Assembly: GCF_015752205.1 (NCBI RefSeq)
Contig: NZ_JADOVG010000020.1
Location: 1-64,000 of the forward strand
Source: Polaromonas sp. CG_9.7
Lineage (GTDB): Bacteria; Pseudomonadota; Gammaproteobacteria; Burkholderiales; Burkholderiaceae_C
Length of the DNA stretch: 64,000 bases
Direction of reading: 5' to 3'
The notes below the pieces were generated by a model. That model made no database searches and had not been told where the DNA came from. It saw nothing but the letters and a program-made list of their open reading frames with translations. The position numbers were made by a program, and so were the translations under genes. Positions 50,356 through 57,330 of this stretch are shown piece by piece (the first letter of the stretch is position 1; every line of letters begins with the position of its first letter).

Positions 50356-51956
50356 GCCTGCCGCTGCTGGACGTCAAGGGGCTTCGCGTGTCATTTGGTG
50401 GCAAAGAGGTGGTGCGCGGCATCGACTTTTCCATCGCGTCCGGAGAAAAACTGGCGCTGGTTGGCGAGTCGGGTTCGGGCAAGACGGTAACAGCGCTCAG
50501 CCTGCTGCGGCTGGTTCAGGATGCGGCGATCAGCGGAAAAGCGGTCTTTGAAGCGCCCGGCGGCCAGGGTGATTTGCTGTCCATGCCAGAGCGGGCGCTG
50601 CTGGGGATTCGTGGCAGGGACATCGCCATGATTTTTCAGGAACCGATGACCGCGTTGAACCCGCTGTTCACCGTGGGTGAGCAAATTGCCGAGGTTTTGC
50701 AGTTAAAAGAGGGTGTTACGCAAGCTGCATCTGCACAGGCTGCTATTGAACTGTTAGCAAGCACCGGTATTCCAGAGCCTGAGCGGCGGGCCAGGTCTTT
50801 TCCGCATCAGTTGTCCGGCGGTCAGCGCCAACGCGCCATGATCGCCATGGCATTGGCTTGCCGTCCCAAACTTCTTTTGGCTGATGAGCCGACGACCGCG
50901 CTGGATGTCACCCTGCGCGGCCAGATTCTGGACCTGCTCGGTGATTTACAGCGGAAAAACGGCATGGCCGTGCTGCTGATCACCCACGACCTGAATCTGG
51001 TGCGACGGTTTGCCGACCGGGTGGCGGTCATGGAAAACGGCCACATCGTCGAGCAGGGCAAGGTTCTCGATGTGTTTGCCCGACCGCAACATGCCTACAC
51101 CCGCAAGCTGATCGACAGCAAACCCGTGCGCGATGTCAATGAAGGCCGTCCGAAAGCCGAGCAGCTCCCGCCGATCATGCGGGCCAGCCAGTTGCGCGTT
51201 GCCTATCCGGTGGCGGTTCCCGGTATCCGGGGCTGGTTCAAGAGCGGCGAGTTTGTCGCCGTCAAGGAGGCAAGCTTTGTCATTGCACCAGGAAAAACGC
51301 TCGGTATTGTGGGCGAGTCGGGTTCTGGCAAGTCCACGCTGGCGCTGGCCTGTCTGGGGTTGCTAAAGTTTTCTGGCCAGTTGCAGGCGGCGGGGCAGTC
51401 GTGGAGCCGGCAGGCTGCCGGCAATAAAGCCATTCGCAAGGTGGTGCAGGTGGTATTTCAGGACCCGTTTTCCTCGCTGTCGCCGCGCATGACGGTTGAG
51501 GCGATCGTCGAAGAAGGCTTGCTGGTGCACGAGCCTTTGCTGAGCCAGGTCGAAAGACGAAAGCGTGTTGAACAATCGCTGGCCGATGTGGGCATGGACG
51601 AAGCGCAGTTTTCGGGGCTGCTGCGGCGCTATCCGCATGAATTCTCGGGAGGGCAGCGCCAGCGGCTGGCCATTGCCAGAGTGCTGATCATCAATCCCGG
51701 CCTGCTGGTGCTGGATGAACCTACCAGCGCGCTGGATGTGACGATTCAAAAACAGGTGCTGGGGTTGCTTCAGCGGCTGCAGCGGGAGCGCGGCCTGAGC
51801 TACCTTTTAATTACACACGACATCGACGTGATTCGCGCCATGGCCCACGATGTCATGGTCATGAAAGACGGGGAAATCGTTGAATCGGGTACTGTGCAGT
51901 CGGTGCTGGACCGGCCGCAGCATCCTTACACAAAAATTCTGGTGGCACAGGGTTGA
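50352..51956 (+). CDS. yejF: ABC transporter ATPase YejF (fused double ATPase)
   Basis: Two ABC ATPase domains in one chain of 534 aa. The first has Walker A GESGSGKTVT, signature QLSGGQRQRAMIAMAL and Walker B LLLADEPTTALDV. The second has GESGSGKSTL, FSGGQRQRLAIARVL and LLVLDEPTSALDV. It energises import through YejB and YejE. The start at 50352 (MSLPLLDVKGLRVSF) overlaps the yejE stop. A stretch with unusual AT-rich codons at 50700-50759 corresponds to the ~60-bp repeat family, yet the protein keeps the same length as E. coli YejF there. Confidence 0.95.
   Translation: MSLPLLDVKGLRVSFGGKEVVRGIDFSIASGEKLALVGESGSGKTVTALSLLRLVQDAAISGKAVFEAPGGQGDLLSMPERALLGIRGRDIAMIFQEPMTALNPLFTVGEQIAEVLQLKEGVTQAASAQAAIELLASTGIPEPERRARSFPHQLSGGQRQRAMIAMALACRPKLLLADEPTTALDVTLRGQILDLLGDLQRKNGMAVLLITHDLNLVRRFADRVAVMENGHIVEQGKVLDVFARPQHAYTRKLIDSKPVRDVNEGRPKAEQLPPIMRASQLRVAYPVAVPGIRGWFKSGEFVAVKEASFVIAPGKTLGIVGESGSGKSTLALACLGLLKFSGQLQAAGQSWSRQAAGNKAIRKVVQVVFQDPFSSLSPRMTVEAIVEEGLLVHEPLLSQVERRKRVEQSLADVGMDEAQFSGLLRRYPHEFSGGQRQRLAIARVLIINPGLLVLDEPTSALDVTIQKQVLGLLQRLQRERGLSYLLITHDIDVIRAMAHDVMVMKDGEIVESGTVQSVLDRPQHPYTKILVAQG
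50700..50759 (-). repeat. AT-rich ~60-bp repeat inside yejF
   Basis: Coding-strand order is AGTTAAAAGAGGGTGTTACG, then CAAGCTGCATCTGCACAGGC, then TGCTATTGAACTGTTAGC. It encodes LKEGVTQAASAQAAIELLAS. Codon use (TTA, AAA, GTT, ATT) departs sharply from the rest of the gene. Confidence 0.55.
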
Positions 51957-52016: not shown

Positions 52017-52052
52017 TTGCATCACAGCGTCCTTTGCGCTAGAATACGCACT
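52017..52052 (+). promoter_or_regulatory. sigma-70 promoter of the rimP-nusA-infB operon
   Basis: TTGCAT (52017-52022) and TAGAAT (52040-52045) are separated by 17 bp, so transcription should start near 52052. Confidence 0.75.
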
Positions 52053-52062
52053 TCACACGACC

Positions 52063-52094
52063 AAATGGGCGGGTTTTTACCGCCCATTTTTTTT
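52063..52094 (+). terminator. leader terminator/attenuator before rimP
   Basis: AAATGGGCG (52063-52071) pairs with CGCCCATTT (52081-52089), and a run of eight T's follows. It lies only about 10-40 bases past the inferred start site and before rimP, so readthrough must be allowed for the operon to be expressed. Confidence 0.8.
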
Positions 52095-52159
52095 GGGCGT
52101 TTGTTTTTGCACAGGGCAGACGAGCAGCTGGCAAATCGCTAAAAGGAACGAAAGACTGA

Positions 52160-52768
52160 ATGGCTTTGCAAGAGACGATTGAGCAAACGGTAACGGGGCT
52201 GGGCTACGAACTGGTAGAGATCGAGCGAACCAGCGGCGGCTTGCTGCGTGTCACGATTGACATGCCTTACCTTGCCGGAACGCCGGCCGAGGCCGTGCAG
52301 TTCATCAACGCCGAAGACTGCGAGAAGGTGACCCGCCAATTGCAATTCGTGCTTGAAGTCGAAGGCGCAGAGTATTCGCGCCTTGAAGTCAGTTCCCCCG
52401 GCATCGACCGGCCGCTGCGCAATGAAAAAGATTTTGACCGTTTTGTGGGGGAGTTGATCGACATTACCCTCAAAGCACCGATTGGCGTGGCTGCAAGTGC
52501 GGGTTCGACCGTTTCGGCCACCCGCAAGAAATTCCGCGGAACGCTCGAACAGGCTGAGCCTGTTGGCGCCCAACCGTCATGGCAAATCGTCTGGAGCGAT
52601 GAGCCTGCCGTGAAGCCTGGGCAGAAGGTCAGCAAGAAACGAATTCCTGCACCCCTTCAGGCGCTGGGGTTCACGCTGGATGAAATCCAGCAGGCGCGTT
52701 TGGCGCCCGTGGTTGATTTCAAGGGCCGCAGACCCAAACCTGTTGACGATACATCCATAAAAATATAA
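52160..52768 (+). CDS. rimP: ribosome maturation factor RimP
   Basis: Helps assemble the 30S subunit. The N-terminal domain opens [20 protein letters not shown] with [11 protein letters not shown], and the family motif is [21 protein letters not shown], the RimP signature. At 202 aa it is longer than E. coli RimP (about 150) because of extra residues in the C-terminal SH3-like part (about 110-160), common in Burkholderiales. It is the first gene of the nusA-infB operon, followed by nusA after 22 bases. Confidence 0.94.
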
Positions 52769-52790: not shown

Positions 52791-54311
52791 ATGAATCGCG
52801 AACTGTTGATGCTGGTTGATGCCATCTCGCGTGAAAAAAACGTTGAGCGCGACGTGGTGTTCGGTGCTGTCGAGCTTGCGCTCGCTTCGGCGACCAAGAA
52901 AGTTTATGCCGATGGCGTGGATATCCGTGTCGTGGTGGATCGCGACAGCGGGACGTACGAAACCTTCCGTCGCTGGCTGGTCGTTGCCGACGAGGCTGGC
53001 CTGCAAAACCCCGAAGCCGAAGAGTTGGTGACTGATGCGCGCGACGAAATCGCCGACATCGAAGAGGGTGACTACATTGAGAAGCCGGTGGAAAGCCTGC
53101 CGATTGGCCGTATTGGTGCGCAAGCGGCCAAGCAGGTTATTTTGCAGAAAATCCGCGATGCCGAGCGTGAAATGCTGCTCAATGACTTCATGTCACGCGG
53201 CGACAAGATATTTGTCGGCACTGTCAAACGCATGGACAAGGGCGACCTGATCGTCGAGTCCGGCCGGGTTGAGGGCCGTCTGCGCCGCAGCGACATGATT
53301 CCGAAGGAAAACCTGCGCACCGGTGACCGTGTGCGCGCCATGATCATGGAAGTCGACACCACGCTGCGTGGCGCGCCCATCATCCTGTCGCGAACCTCGC
53401 CCGAATACATGATCGAGCTGTTCCGCCAGGAAGTGCCTGAAATTGAGCAGGGTTTGCTCGAAATCAAGACCTGCGCCCGTGACCCGGGTTCACGCGCCAA
53501 GATTGCCGTGCTGTCGCATGACAAGCGCGTCGATCCCATTGGAACCTGCGTCGGCGTTCGCGGAACCCGTGTCAATGGCGTGACCAATGAACTGGCTGGC
53601 GAGCGCGTTGACATCGTGCTGTGGAGCGAAGACCCTGCCCAGTTTGTGATTGGTGCGCTGGCGCCTGCCAACGTGTCGTCGATCGTGGTCGATGAAGAGC
53701 GTCATGCCATGGATGTGGTGGTGGATGAAGAAAATCTTGCAATCGCCATCGGCCGTGGGGGCCAGAACGTTCGCCTGGCGTCCGAGTTGACCGGCTGGAA
53801 GATCAACATCATGGATGCCAACGAGTCGGCCCAGAAGCAAGCCAGTGAAACCGACAGCAGTCGCAAGCTGTTCATGGCCAAGCTAGATGTCGACGAAGAA
53901 ATCGCCGATATCCTGATTGCCGAAGGTTTTACCAGTCTGGAAGAGGTGGCTTATGTGCCACTACAAGAAATGCTCGAGATTGAGTCTTTCGACGAAGACA
54001 CCGTCAATGAGTTGCGCACGCGCGCCAAAGATGCACTGTTGACGATGGAAATCGCCCAGGAAGAAAATGCCGGCGGTGTTTCGCAAAATCTGCGGGACGT
54101 CGAAGGCTTGACGCCCGAGCTGATTGCCAAATTAACCGAAGCGGGTGTTGCCACCCGTGACGACCTGGCCGATCTGGCCGTGGATGAGCTTACCGATATA
54201 ACCGGCCAGTCTGCGGACGAGGCCAAAGCCCTGATCATGACTGCACGCGCCCATTGGTTTACCGATGACGCTGGCGACGCTGCTGCGCCCGCAGCAGCCC
54301 AAGAGCAATGA
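52791..54311 (+). CDS. nusA: transcription elongation/termination factor NusA
   Basis: RNA polymerase-binding factor for pausing, termination and antitermination. The N-terminal domain starts [20 protein letters not shown]. The S1 domain lies near residues 135-200, two KH domains near 230-350 ([20 protein letters not shown] and [20 protein letters not shown]), and the C-terminal acidic repeats near 370-500. The full 506 aa are intact. In the E. coli operon NusA feeds back on leader termination, relevant to the hairpin at 52063. Confidence 0.97.
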
Positions 54312-54339
54312 TCATGGAGGCCAGTCAGGAAAACCAAAT

Positions 54340-57330
54340 ATGTCCAGTACCACTACCGTCGCTGAATTCGCAGCTGAATTGAATAAATCTCCCGCTACCC
54401 TGATCGAGCAATTGACCAGCGCAGGCGTTGCAAAATCGCAGGCCAGCGATCCCTTGTCGGAATCCGACAAGCAAAAGCTGCTCGGCTACTTGCATGCCAG
54501 CCATGGCACTGTCGCGGCCGATCGAAAAAAGATCACCTTGATGAAGAAGTCGACTTCGGAAATCAAACAAGCCGATTCCACGGGCAAGGCCCGCACCATC
54601 CCCGTTCAAACCATCAAGAAGCGCACCTTCATCAGACGTGAAGACGAAGCCGACCTGCCAGTTGAAAACGCCCAATCAAGCATGTCTGCAAATGCTCCGC
54701 AGATTCAGGCTGCCGAAGATGCCGAGCTGGTTCGCCGTGAAGACGAGGCTAACCGTAATGCCGAGCTATGGCGCCTTCAGGAAGAAGAACTGACGGAAAA
54801 GCGCCGTGTCCGCGATGAGCAGGCCGCGCAAGACGCAGCTCGCGAACAGGAACGCGAAGCCGCTGCACAGAAAGCTCAAGCCGAGGCGCAAGCCCAGCAG
54901 GCTCAGGCGCAAGCGGCGGCCCAAGCCGCTGCTGCTGCCGAAGCGGCAAAAAAGCCCAAGCCGACCATTGGCAAAATATTCAAGCCGGCGCCCGTTGCTC
55001 CGGTTGCTCCAACTGTTACCGAGGAAGCACCAAAGACCGTGGACACTGCCGCAGCAGAAAAAATCAGCAAGGCTGCCGAGGCTGCAAGCGCCAAGGCTGC
55101 TGAAGCCGCAACCCTCCAGGCGGCTGCCAAAGCCAAGGCCACTGCCGAATTCCAGGCGGATGCGGCCAAGGCCGTGGATCTGCAGGAACGCCGCCGCAAG
55201 GCCGAAGCAGAAGCTGCTGGCATTCGCGCCATGCTGTCTGCGCCCAAACGTGTGCTGGTTCCCCATGTCGACCCCAAGGTCGCGATGAAGGGAACGCTGC
55301 ACAAGCCGGTGGTTGCCCCGGGTGCTGCCAAGCCTGCTGCTACGGGTGCGGCGGGTGCACCAGCTGCGCCAGGCGCCGCCGGCAAGAAGGAAGTCAAGTC
55401 AGAAAATTTGTCTTCGACTTGGAAAGACGACGCGGCCAAGAAAAAAGGTATTCCGAGCCGTGGCGCTCCGGTGGTACCGGGTCGCGGCAATTTCCGTCCT
55501 GGTGCGCGCGGCCGCCGCAGTGGTGGACGCGAGGTGCGTCCGGAATCGAATTTTGTCGCTCCGACCGAATTCAAGGTGATCGAGGTCCATGTGCCCGAAA
55601 CCATCACCGTGGGTGAACTGGCGCACAAGATGAGCGTGAAGTCGTCCGAGGTCATCAAGCATTTGATGAAGCTGGGCCAGATGGTCACCATCAACCAGCC
55701 GCTGGACCAGGACACCGCCATGATCGTGGTGGAAGAAATGGGCCACAAGGCTCTTACGGCAGCGCTGGACGATCCGGAAGCCTTCACCGACGACGACGTG
55801 CAGGGCCAGCAGTCCGAGGCACTTCCGCGCGCACCGGTGGTCACCGTCATGGGTCACGTTGACCATGGCAAGACCTCGCTGCTCGACTACATCCGGCGCG
55901 CCAAGGTGGCCTCCGGTGAAGCCGGCGGCATTACCCAACATATCGGTGCCTATCATGTCCAAACACCGCGCGGTATGGTGTCCTTCCTGGATACCCCGGG
56001 CCACGAGGCGTTCACCGCCATGCGTGCCCGTGGCGCGCAGGCTACCGACATCGTGATTTTGGTGGTTGCAGCGGACGACGGTGTGATGCCGCAGACCAAG
56101 GAAGCCATCAAGCACGCCCGTGCCGCTGGTGTTCCGATCGTTGTGGCAATCAACAAGATTGACAAGCCTGGCATCAACATGGAACGCGTCAAGGGTGAGC
56201 TGGTCACCGAAGGCGTCGTCCCCGAAGAGTTTGGCGGCGACTCACCGTTTGTGCCAGTCTCGGCGCATACCGGTGCAGGTATCGATGAACTGCTCGAACA
56301 GGTGCTGCTGCAGGCTGAAGTGCTTGAGCTCAAGGCATCGGTGGACTCCCTGGCCAAGGGCCTGGTGATCGAAGCGCGTCTCGACAAGGGCCGTGGTCCG
56401 GTTGCCACCGTGCTGGTCCAGTCCGGAACCCTGAAGGCGGGCGACGTGGTGCTGGCGGGCTCGACCTATGGCCGCGTGCGCGCCATGCTCGACGAAAACG
56501 GCAAGCCGATCAAGACCGCTGGTCCTTCGATTCCCGTCGAAATCCAGGGCCTGACGGAAGTGCCGCAAGCCGGCGACGACTTCATGGTCATGACCGACGA
56601 ACGCCGTGTGCGCGAAATCGCCACCTACCGTGCTGGCAAGTTCCGCAACACCAAGCTGGCCAAACAGCAGGCGTCCAAGCTGGAGAACATGTTCTCCGAC
56701 ATCAACGCTGGCGAAGTCAAGTTGCTGCCCATCATCATCAAGGCTGATGTGCAGGGTTCGCAGGAAGCGCTGGCGCAGTCGCTGCTCAAGCTGTCGACTG
56801 ACGAGGTCAAGGTGCAGCTGGTGTACTCGGGTGTTGGTGGTATTTCCGAATCCGACGTCAACCTGGCGATTGCTTCGAAAGCGGTTCTGATCGGGTTCAA
56901 TACCCGGGCCGATGCCCAGGCGCGCAAGCAGGCCGAGAACAACGGCGTTGACATTCGCTACTACCAGATCATTTATGACGCGGTGGACGAGCTCAAGGCT
57001 GCCATGTCCGGCATGCTGACACCTGACAAGAAGGAAGAAATCATCGGTAATGCCGAGATTCGCAACATCTTCAAGGTCAGCAAGATCGGCTCGATTGCCG
57101 GCTGTATGGTCACCGCTGGTGTGGTTCGCCGCACCGCCAGGTTGCGCTTGCTGCGCCAGAACGTGGTCATCTTCACCGGTGAACTCGACTCGCTCAAGCG
57201 CTTCAAGGACGATGCCAAGGAAGTCAAGGAAGGCTTCGAGTGCGGCTTGAACCTGAAGAACTACAACGACATCGAAGTCGGCGACATCCTGGAGTTCTTC
57301 GAAATCAAGGAAGTGGCCCGGACCTTGTAA
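54340..57330 (+). CDS. infB: translation initiation factor IF-2
   Basis: GTPase that brings initiator tRNA to the ribosome, 996 aa. An IF-2 N-terminal domain (residues about 1-55, [20 protein letters not shown]) precedes a long Ala/Glu/Lys-rich linker (about 130-330). A second IF2_N domain lies near 410. The G domain begins about residue 505 with GHVDHGKT, then DTPGHEAF and NKIDKPG. The start at 54340 has AGGAAAACC upstream. In-frame codons back to 54265 overlap nusA and are not family-like. Confidence 0.97.

What the first reader, a model, noticed from the sequence alone, without database searches (positions are those of the whole stretch)
52017..52159. Promoter followed at once by a leader terminator in the rimP-nusA-infB operon
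A TTGCAT-N17-TAGAAT promoter is followed within about 10 bases of the inferred start by a strong stem with eight T's. Everything downstream must read through it. In E. coli the operon is known to be autoregulated by NusA, and this leader is a natural place for such control.
Basis: partly seen in the sequence, partly recalled or inferred. Interest (0 to 1): 0.5.

Follow-up and report, generated by a model that had tools for sequence, protein, structure and literature searches.

The report
Conserved rimP-leader terminator in Burkholderiales
Just after its promoter, the operon for the transcription factor NusA carries a short RNA stop signal that has been kept almost letter for letter in related bacteria, and it is very probably a brake by which NusA limits its own production, a kind of control already described in other bacteria.

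Summary
In this Polaromonas window a -10 (TAGAAT, 52040-52045) is followed about 11 nt after the inferred start by a GC-rich stem with eight T (52063-52094), then by rimP-nusA-infB. Promoter and terminator form one module: in 79 of 79 assessable Comamonadaceae loci a TA[C/G/T]AAT lies at nearly fixed spacing (25 nt in 70 of 79) from the same GGGC...GCCC-T hairpin. All 119 family genomes with a RimP match have the hairpin upstream of rimP (68 read directly; 51 by model hit), as do all 22 representatives of other families of the order. A strong model hit occurs once in each of 157 genomes. This is the 'rimP-leader' of Naville & Gautheret 2010, for which NusA feedback was proposed; B. subtilis NusA autoregulation by leader attenuation is reported, as is a rimP leader ending 31 nt after its start in S. 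agalactiae. So it is a known kind in new members; Rfam's rimP model did not reach its cut-off here. A pairing that would bracket the T run is not established.

The parts
52017..52022 (+). weak -35 (TTGCAT)
   Evidence: read directly; 3 of 6 of the consensus; weak conservation in relatives
52040..52045 (+). -10 hexamer TAGAAT
   Evidence: TA[C/G/T]AAT 24-27 nt before GGGC in 79 of 79 assessable loci; 27 nt here
52050..52054 (+). inferred transcription start (about 52052)
   Evidence: inference: about 7 nt after the -10; not mapped
52057..52065 (+). conserved ACGACCAAA just before the stem core
   Evidence: 1.74 bits per position on average over -10..-1 in 79 loci; alignment A1
52063..52089 (+). 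terminator stem-loop with the rimP-leader signature GGGC...GCCC (52067-52070 / 52082-52085)
   Evidence: GGGC/GCCC pairs unchanged in 53 of 53 rows and U-A/C-G exchange at the pair below
52087..52094 (+). T8 tract, expected 3' end of the terminated leader RNA (about 38-43 nt long)
   Evidence: 1.81 bits per position on average over +20..+29, T run and GG; end point inferred
52095..52107 (+). moderately conserved GGGCGTTTGTTTT after the T run; could pair with CGACC (52058-52062, one mismatch) or with the 3' arm of the stem in read-through RNA
   Evidence: pairing tests weak or inconclusive
52160..52768 (+). rimP, first gene of the operon
   Evidence: NCBIfam NF011235 344.6 bits, cut-off 297
52791..54311 (+). 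nusA, likely regulator of its own leader
   Evidence: TIGR01953 387.7 bits, cut-off 253.4
54340..57330 (+). infB (IF-2)
   Evidence: TIGR00487 860.5 bits (run from 54337); ATG at 54340, the mechanical ORF begins at 54265

Best explanation
The element is the Burkholderiales form of the rimP-leader attenuator. RNA polymerase starts near 52052, makes about 11 nt of RNA, then a GGGC...GCCC hairpin followed by eight U. A share of polymerases stops near 52094 and releases a leader RNA of about 40 nt; the rest read on into rimP-nusA-infB. NusA bound to the young elongation complex stabilises the hairpin and the pause and so raises the stopped share; when NusA is scarce more polymerases pass and more NusA is made. 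Shown here: the module, its position, its conservation, one strong copy per genome, the operon. Inferred: start site, termination in vivo, dependence on NusA. With only about 11 nt before the stem in this window, the nascent RNA has little to form a competing antiterminator with, so control most likely acts through the polymerase and its bound factors and not through a riboswitch, leader peptide or alternative fold.
For: Promoter and hairpin conserved as a block with nearly fixed spacing and unconserved flanks. 119 of 119 family genomes with a RimP match: 68 read directly (67 with GGGC/GCCC, one with a G-U), 51 by a model hit 19-179 nt upstream of the RimP domain on the same strand. 22 of 22 representatives of other families of the order. 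Compensatory exchange below the stem: C-G 24, U-A 23 of 53; apical closing pair A-U in 33 and U-A in 9 of 68. One match at E 1e-6 in each of 157 genomes. T run to rimP as little as 33-38 nt in several loci. Precedents (passages read): rimP-leader class with NusA proposed (PMC2965389); B. subtilis NusA autoregulated by NusA-stimulated termination in its leader (review PMC12288461); S. agalactiae rimP operon terminates 31 nt after its start, negative NusA feedback suggested (PMC4448216); E. coli t1 and t2 upstream of rimP, transcripts rise when NusA termination is reduced (PMC6511841).
Against: No transcript data for a Burkholderiales rimP leader was seen in the passages read. A -13.8 kcal/mol hairpin with U8 looks like a strong, factor-independent terminator, which leaves less room for NusA regulation. 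Promoter proximity is not universal: a -10-like site (at least 5 of 6) lies within 60 nt of the stem in 50 of 68 family representatives (11 of 68 in a control window) but only 13 of 22 order representatives (control 6 of 22). Whole-structure covariation measures are mixed: 25 double-change cells against 9.9 in shuffles, 23 of them from one pair, and fewer pair types than shuffles (6 against 7.5). In E. coli the rimP fusion fell, not rose, in a Rho mutant (PMC7815308, one passage), so other layers exist.
Confidence: 0.72

Rival explanations
1. A real leader terminator that sets a fixed ratio or responds to another input (cold, NusG, (p)ppGpp, RimP or IF-2), with NusA having no specific role.
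For: The hairpin is strong (-13.8 kcal/mol without the T run); cold induction of the operon is documented in E. coli (PMC6511841, passages). Nothing here tests NusA.
Against: NusA is encoded in the operon and its feedback on this leader is reported in B. subtilis, supported by mutants in E. coli and suggested in S. agalactiae.
Confidence: 0.2
2. The hairpin is simply the 3' terminator of the upstream ABC transporter operon; rimP has another promoter.
For: The upstream gene points the same way and ends at 51956.
Against: A -10 conserved at nearly fixed spacing lies between that gene and the hairpin; the upstream coding end differs between genera while the module stays (read by eye); several loci have only 33-38 nt between T run and rimP.
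Confidence: 0.04
3. The hairpin mainly protects the 5' end of the mRNA or makes a stable small RNA (ProQ/Hfq ligand) and termination is secondary.
For: The rimP leader is named among ProQ-associated RNAs derived from attenuators (PMC5391140, one passage); conserved bases around the stem exceed what termination needs.
Against: The T run is among the most conserved parts; the element was found only upstream of rimP wherever the position of a strong hit was checked.
Confidence: 0.04

Closest known systems
rimP-leader attenuator (Naville & Gautheret 2010, PMC2965389; passages read)
   Same: Upstream of rimP-nusA-infB; GGGc(...)gCCC stem with U stretch; no visible antiterminator; short distance to rimP.
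   Different: Many Burkholderiales members carry an extra 3-bp cap with a bulge and a mostly 4-nt loop and strongly conserved flanking bases; in Comamonadaceae the promoter sits at nearly fixed spacing. Whether the original list held Betaproteobacteria could not be read (supplement not available).
Rfam RF01770 (gammaproteobacterial rimP leader)
   Same: Same gene position; E. coli L172 scores 102 bits and carries a GGGC...GCCC-T7 hairpin next to rimP.
   Different: No match over the cut-off in the window, in 17 other Burkholderiales loci scanned, or in 61 genomes; no tandem upstream terminator/antiterminator in this window.
B. subtilis NusA autoregulation by leader attenuation (stated in review PMC12288461; primary paper Mondal 2016 not held, not read)
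   Same: NusA-stimulated intrinsic termination in the leader of its own gene.
   Different: Another phylum; NusA effect not tested in Burkholderiales.
S. agalactiae gbs0413-gbs0418 leader (PMC4448216; passages read)
   Same: Termination at an intrinsic terminator 31 nt after the start; about 40 nt predicted here.
   Different: Firmicutes; there shown by RNA-seq, here only predicted.

Membership tests
rimP-leader (Naville & Gautheret 2010) | lies in the 5' UTR of rimP-nusA-infB | tested here: met
   79 of 79 assessable named loci; 119 of 119 family genomes with RimP
rimP-leader (Naville & Gautheret 2010) | stem with GGGc(...)gCCC | tested here: met
   window 52067-52070/52082-52085; 67 of 68 family representatives exact, 1 with G-U
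rimP-leader (Naville & Gautheret 2010) | U stretch directly after the stem | tested here: met
   T8 at 52087-52094; T6-T9 in 68 of 68
rimP-leader (Naville & Gautheret 2010) | no visible antiterminator | tested here: met
   only about 11 nt precede the stem in the window (start inferred); longer leaders in relatives were not examined for one
rimP-leader (Naville & Gautheret 2010) | 4-130 nt from terminator to gene start | tested here: met
   65 nt in the window; up to 176 nt in some Acidovorax-type relatives
rimP-leader (Naville & Gautheret 2010) | terminates transcription in vivo and responds to NusA | not testable with these tools
   needs term-seq and NusA titration
Rfam RF01770 rimP | covariance-model score over 47 bits | tested here: not met
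   no hit in window; 0 of 61 genomes over the cut-off, stricter filters; one sub-threshold hit, 36.1 bits in G051, 0.63 Mb from its rimP

The most novel reading that the evidence does not exclude
The module is a promoter-proximal sensor of NusA loading: because the terminator lies 24-27 nt from the -10 in Comamonadaceae, the polymerase reaches it within about 40 nt, when NusA has only begun to replace sigma, so termination there reports the free NusA concentration. The conserved capped, bulged hairpin (GGGC-GGA-UUCA-UCC-A-GCCC in many genera; GGGC-G-GGU-NNNN-ACC-GCCC in Comamonadaceae) would be read in a sequence-specific way by NusA or another operon product.
Probability: 0.13. Interest if true: 0.55.

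Novelty: new member of a known kind. Interest (0 to 1): 0.3.

Why it matters
NusA is a general transcription factor, and how cells hold its level is a basic homeostasis question. A compact promoter-terminator module, found in every assessable locus examined in this order, gives a clean system for testing leader attenuation by NusA outside E. coli and B. subtilis, and shows that the Rfam rimP model does not cover the betaproteobacterial sequences scanned here. The unusually fixed stem and loop sequences predict a specific recognition that can be tested by simple mutation.

Tried and rejected
Outer helix bracketing the T run (CGACC with GG-N-CG, in many Comamonadaceae ACGACCAAA with TTTGGTCG): four of its five pairs almost never vary and the middle pair is not formed in 33 of 53 rows; CGGCC/GGCCG occurs in 2. 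Permuting downstream flanks among species gave, for two measures, p 0.07 and 0.012 (14 Comamonadaceae-type), 0.0025 and 0.21 (49 others of the family), 0.67 and 0.29 (26 remaining, a mixed class: the 22 order representatives plus 4 family ones with a T run under 7), 0.0005 and 0.0195 (all 89 together, where kinship adds to the signal). Nine further comparisons gave p 0.0065 to 0.85, one under 0.05, and no clear excess of enclosing folds. I treat the helix as not established.

A downstream fold in which the 3' arm pairs with GGGCG (52095-52099): present in the scan, but transcribed after the termination decision, so it cannot be an antiterminator.

Riboswitch, T-box, ribosomal-protein leader: no Rfam hit at gathering scores in the window except a tRNA, nor in 18 other loci except E. 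coli rimP and a tRNA.

boxA-like sequence after the terminator: looked at by eye only; no consistent boxA, dropped.

Bidirectional terminator: on the minus strand only TTT follows the stem.

Extra copies: weaker second hits at E 4e-5 to 0.01 in some genomes, and weak hits in nine other-family genomes, lie elsewhere, except G053 next to its rimP; I did not inspect them.

L059 lacked the hairpin only because its contig ends 102 nt upstream of rimP; L020 and L049 have a GCTC variant. One of 120 family genomes (G153) gave no RimP match; two of 24 other-family genomes (G041, G042) gave none.

The 68 family representatives are the 30 loci returned plus 38 upstream regions fetched (34 without a listed R1 hit, 4 with weak ones); a few share a genus, and L203 and L205 carry the same leader. 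The other 51 of 119 were not read in this set; one search checks the positions of their model hits. The 79 named loci are related (many Polaromonas) and not independent.

Papers looked into without a result for this question: PMC8060035 (passages); PMC7272453 (passages: nusA/nusB mRNAs change in a meningococcal proQ mutant).

Full report
What is there. The window lies in a Polaromonas genome: the nearest named NusA relatives are Polaromonas (99 and 98% identity). The genes that follow are rimP, nusA, infB, rbfA, truB and typA; an ABC ATPase closest to YejF lies upstream. The hairpin is far more stable than shuffles of the same sequence (z -5.9) and has the most pairs of the terminator-like sites in 4 kb. 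The promoter is not called by a consensus scan, because its -35 is poor.

Is it more than chance. I collected 80 named loci by NusA. In 79 the upstream region is present, and all 79 carry the module; the 80th contig ends too early. Anchored on GGGC, conservation is 0.05-0.15 bits per position from -90 to -51 and 0.2-0.35 from -50 to -31. It is 0.99 from -30 to -21 (the -10 hexamer), 0.80 from -20 to -11, 1.4-1.8 from -10 to +29, 0.82 from +30 to +39, 0.41 from +40 to +49 and 0.08 from +50 to +59. The -10 is TACAAT 60, TAGAAT 12, TATAAT 7, starting at -25 in 70 of 79; a control window upstream reaches the same match in 1 of 79. These loci are related to each other, so the counts are not independent events. 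The GGGC...GCCC-T5 pattern itself gives 26 rows in the 4.15-Mb genome.

How far it reaches. A covariance model R1 of 53 sequences finds 43 of 61 relatives at E 0.01, including 34 of the 37 same-genus genomes (own genome counted); the other three are the ones without a RimP match. The nine remaining genomes have weak hits that, except in G053, are not at rimP. R1 finds 157 of 300 genomes of the family at E 1e-6, each with exactly one match. The family members without a hit that I could check are not without the element but have a diverged form. Of 119 family genomes with a RimP match, 68 were read directly: 67 have GGGC/GCCC and one GGGC/GCTC. The other 51 have an R1 hit upstream of RimP on the same strand (60 of 60 listed hits in these genomes lie 19-179 nt from the RimP domain match). 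A frequent form has the cap GGA-UUCA-UCC and a bulged A, identical in 16 of 68. All 22 genomes of other families in the order with a RimP match also have the hairpin; 21 have at least five T, one (L152) four. E. coli has a GGGC...GCCC-T7 hairpin next to rimP.

Structure evidence. The core pairs never vary, so they say little by themselves. The pair below the core is C-G in 24 and U-A in 23 of 53 rows. The apical closing pair, by a fixed pattern, is A-U in 33, U-A in 9, G-U in 3 and unpaired in 7 of 68, and 16 have another shape. Over the whole structure double changes exceed shuffles (25 against 9.9 cells, 23 from one pair) while the number of pair types does not (6 against 7.5). A longer helix that would enclose the T run is not supported firmly.

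Mechanism. Only about 11 nt of RNA precede the stem if the start is 7 nt after the -10. That speaks against a classical upstream antiterminator or leader-peptide control in this window, and points to factors on the polymerase. In several loci only 33-38 nt lie between the T run and rimP, so a second promoter hardly fits. The spacing is not general: a -10-like site lies within 60 nt of the stem in 50 of 68 family representatives (control window 11 of 68) and in 13 of 22 of the order (control 6 of 22). The homologous leader was described as the most ubiquitous attenuator, with NusA as the best candidate (PMC2965389, passages read). A review states that B. subtilis NusA is autoregulated by NusA-stimulated termination in its leader (PMC12288461, passages). 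In S. agalactiae the rimP operon terminates 31 nt after its start and NusA feedback is suggested (PMC4448216, passages). In E. coli two terminators precede rimP and transcripts rise when NusA termination is reduced (PMC6511841, passages). The rimP leader is named among ProQ-associated attenuator RNAs (PMC5391140, one passage). Against a simple picture, an E. coli rimP fusion fell in a Rho mutant (PMC7815308, one passage).

What is known and what is not. The phrase 'rimP leader' was searched in the held papers and found in three. Further searches listed no paper whose title or opening abstract concerns the rimP leader of a betaproteobacterium; two searches listed 25 of 40 and 25 of 105 papers. 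In PMC5688073 (B. cenocepacia, 82 short 5'UTR transcripts; passages) the main text does not mention nusA and its tables were not readable here. I therefore call it a new member of a known kind, with moderate-to-low interest. The nearly fixed spacing in Comamonadaceae and the near-invariant hairpin sequence are the parts that go beyond the published description I could read.

Noticed in passing
window 52095-52107 and family loci L173-L240: About 14 nt after the T run are moderately conserved across the family (G-C/G-T-Y-G-A-N-C-G-N-T-T-T), although they cannot be part of a terminated transcript. Pairing does not clearly explain this.
   Followed up: partly
L173-L240 (family representatives outside the Comamonadaceae type): The hairpin cap GGA-UUCA-UCC with a bulged A before GCCC is letter-for-letter identical in 16 of 68 genomes, unusual for a terminator loop.
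   Followed up: partly
L067, L073, L077, L084, L099 (Acidovorax-type loci): Between the leader hairpin and rimP lies an extra similar stretch (GGAGCTCGAAGCTGTCGG...GGGTTATCGGGTTTTTT) that may be a second terminator-like element.
   Followed up: no
G051, locus L111: One sub-threshold RF01770 match (36.1 bits) far from that genome's rimP.
   Followed up: no
window 54265-54340: The longest infB reading frame overlaps the end of nusA; the likely infB start is the ATG at 54340.
   Followed up: partly
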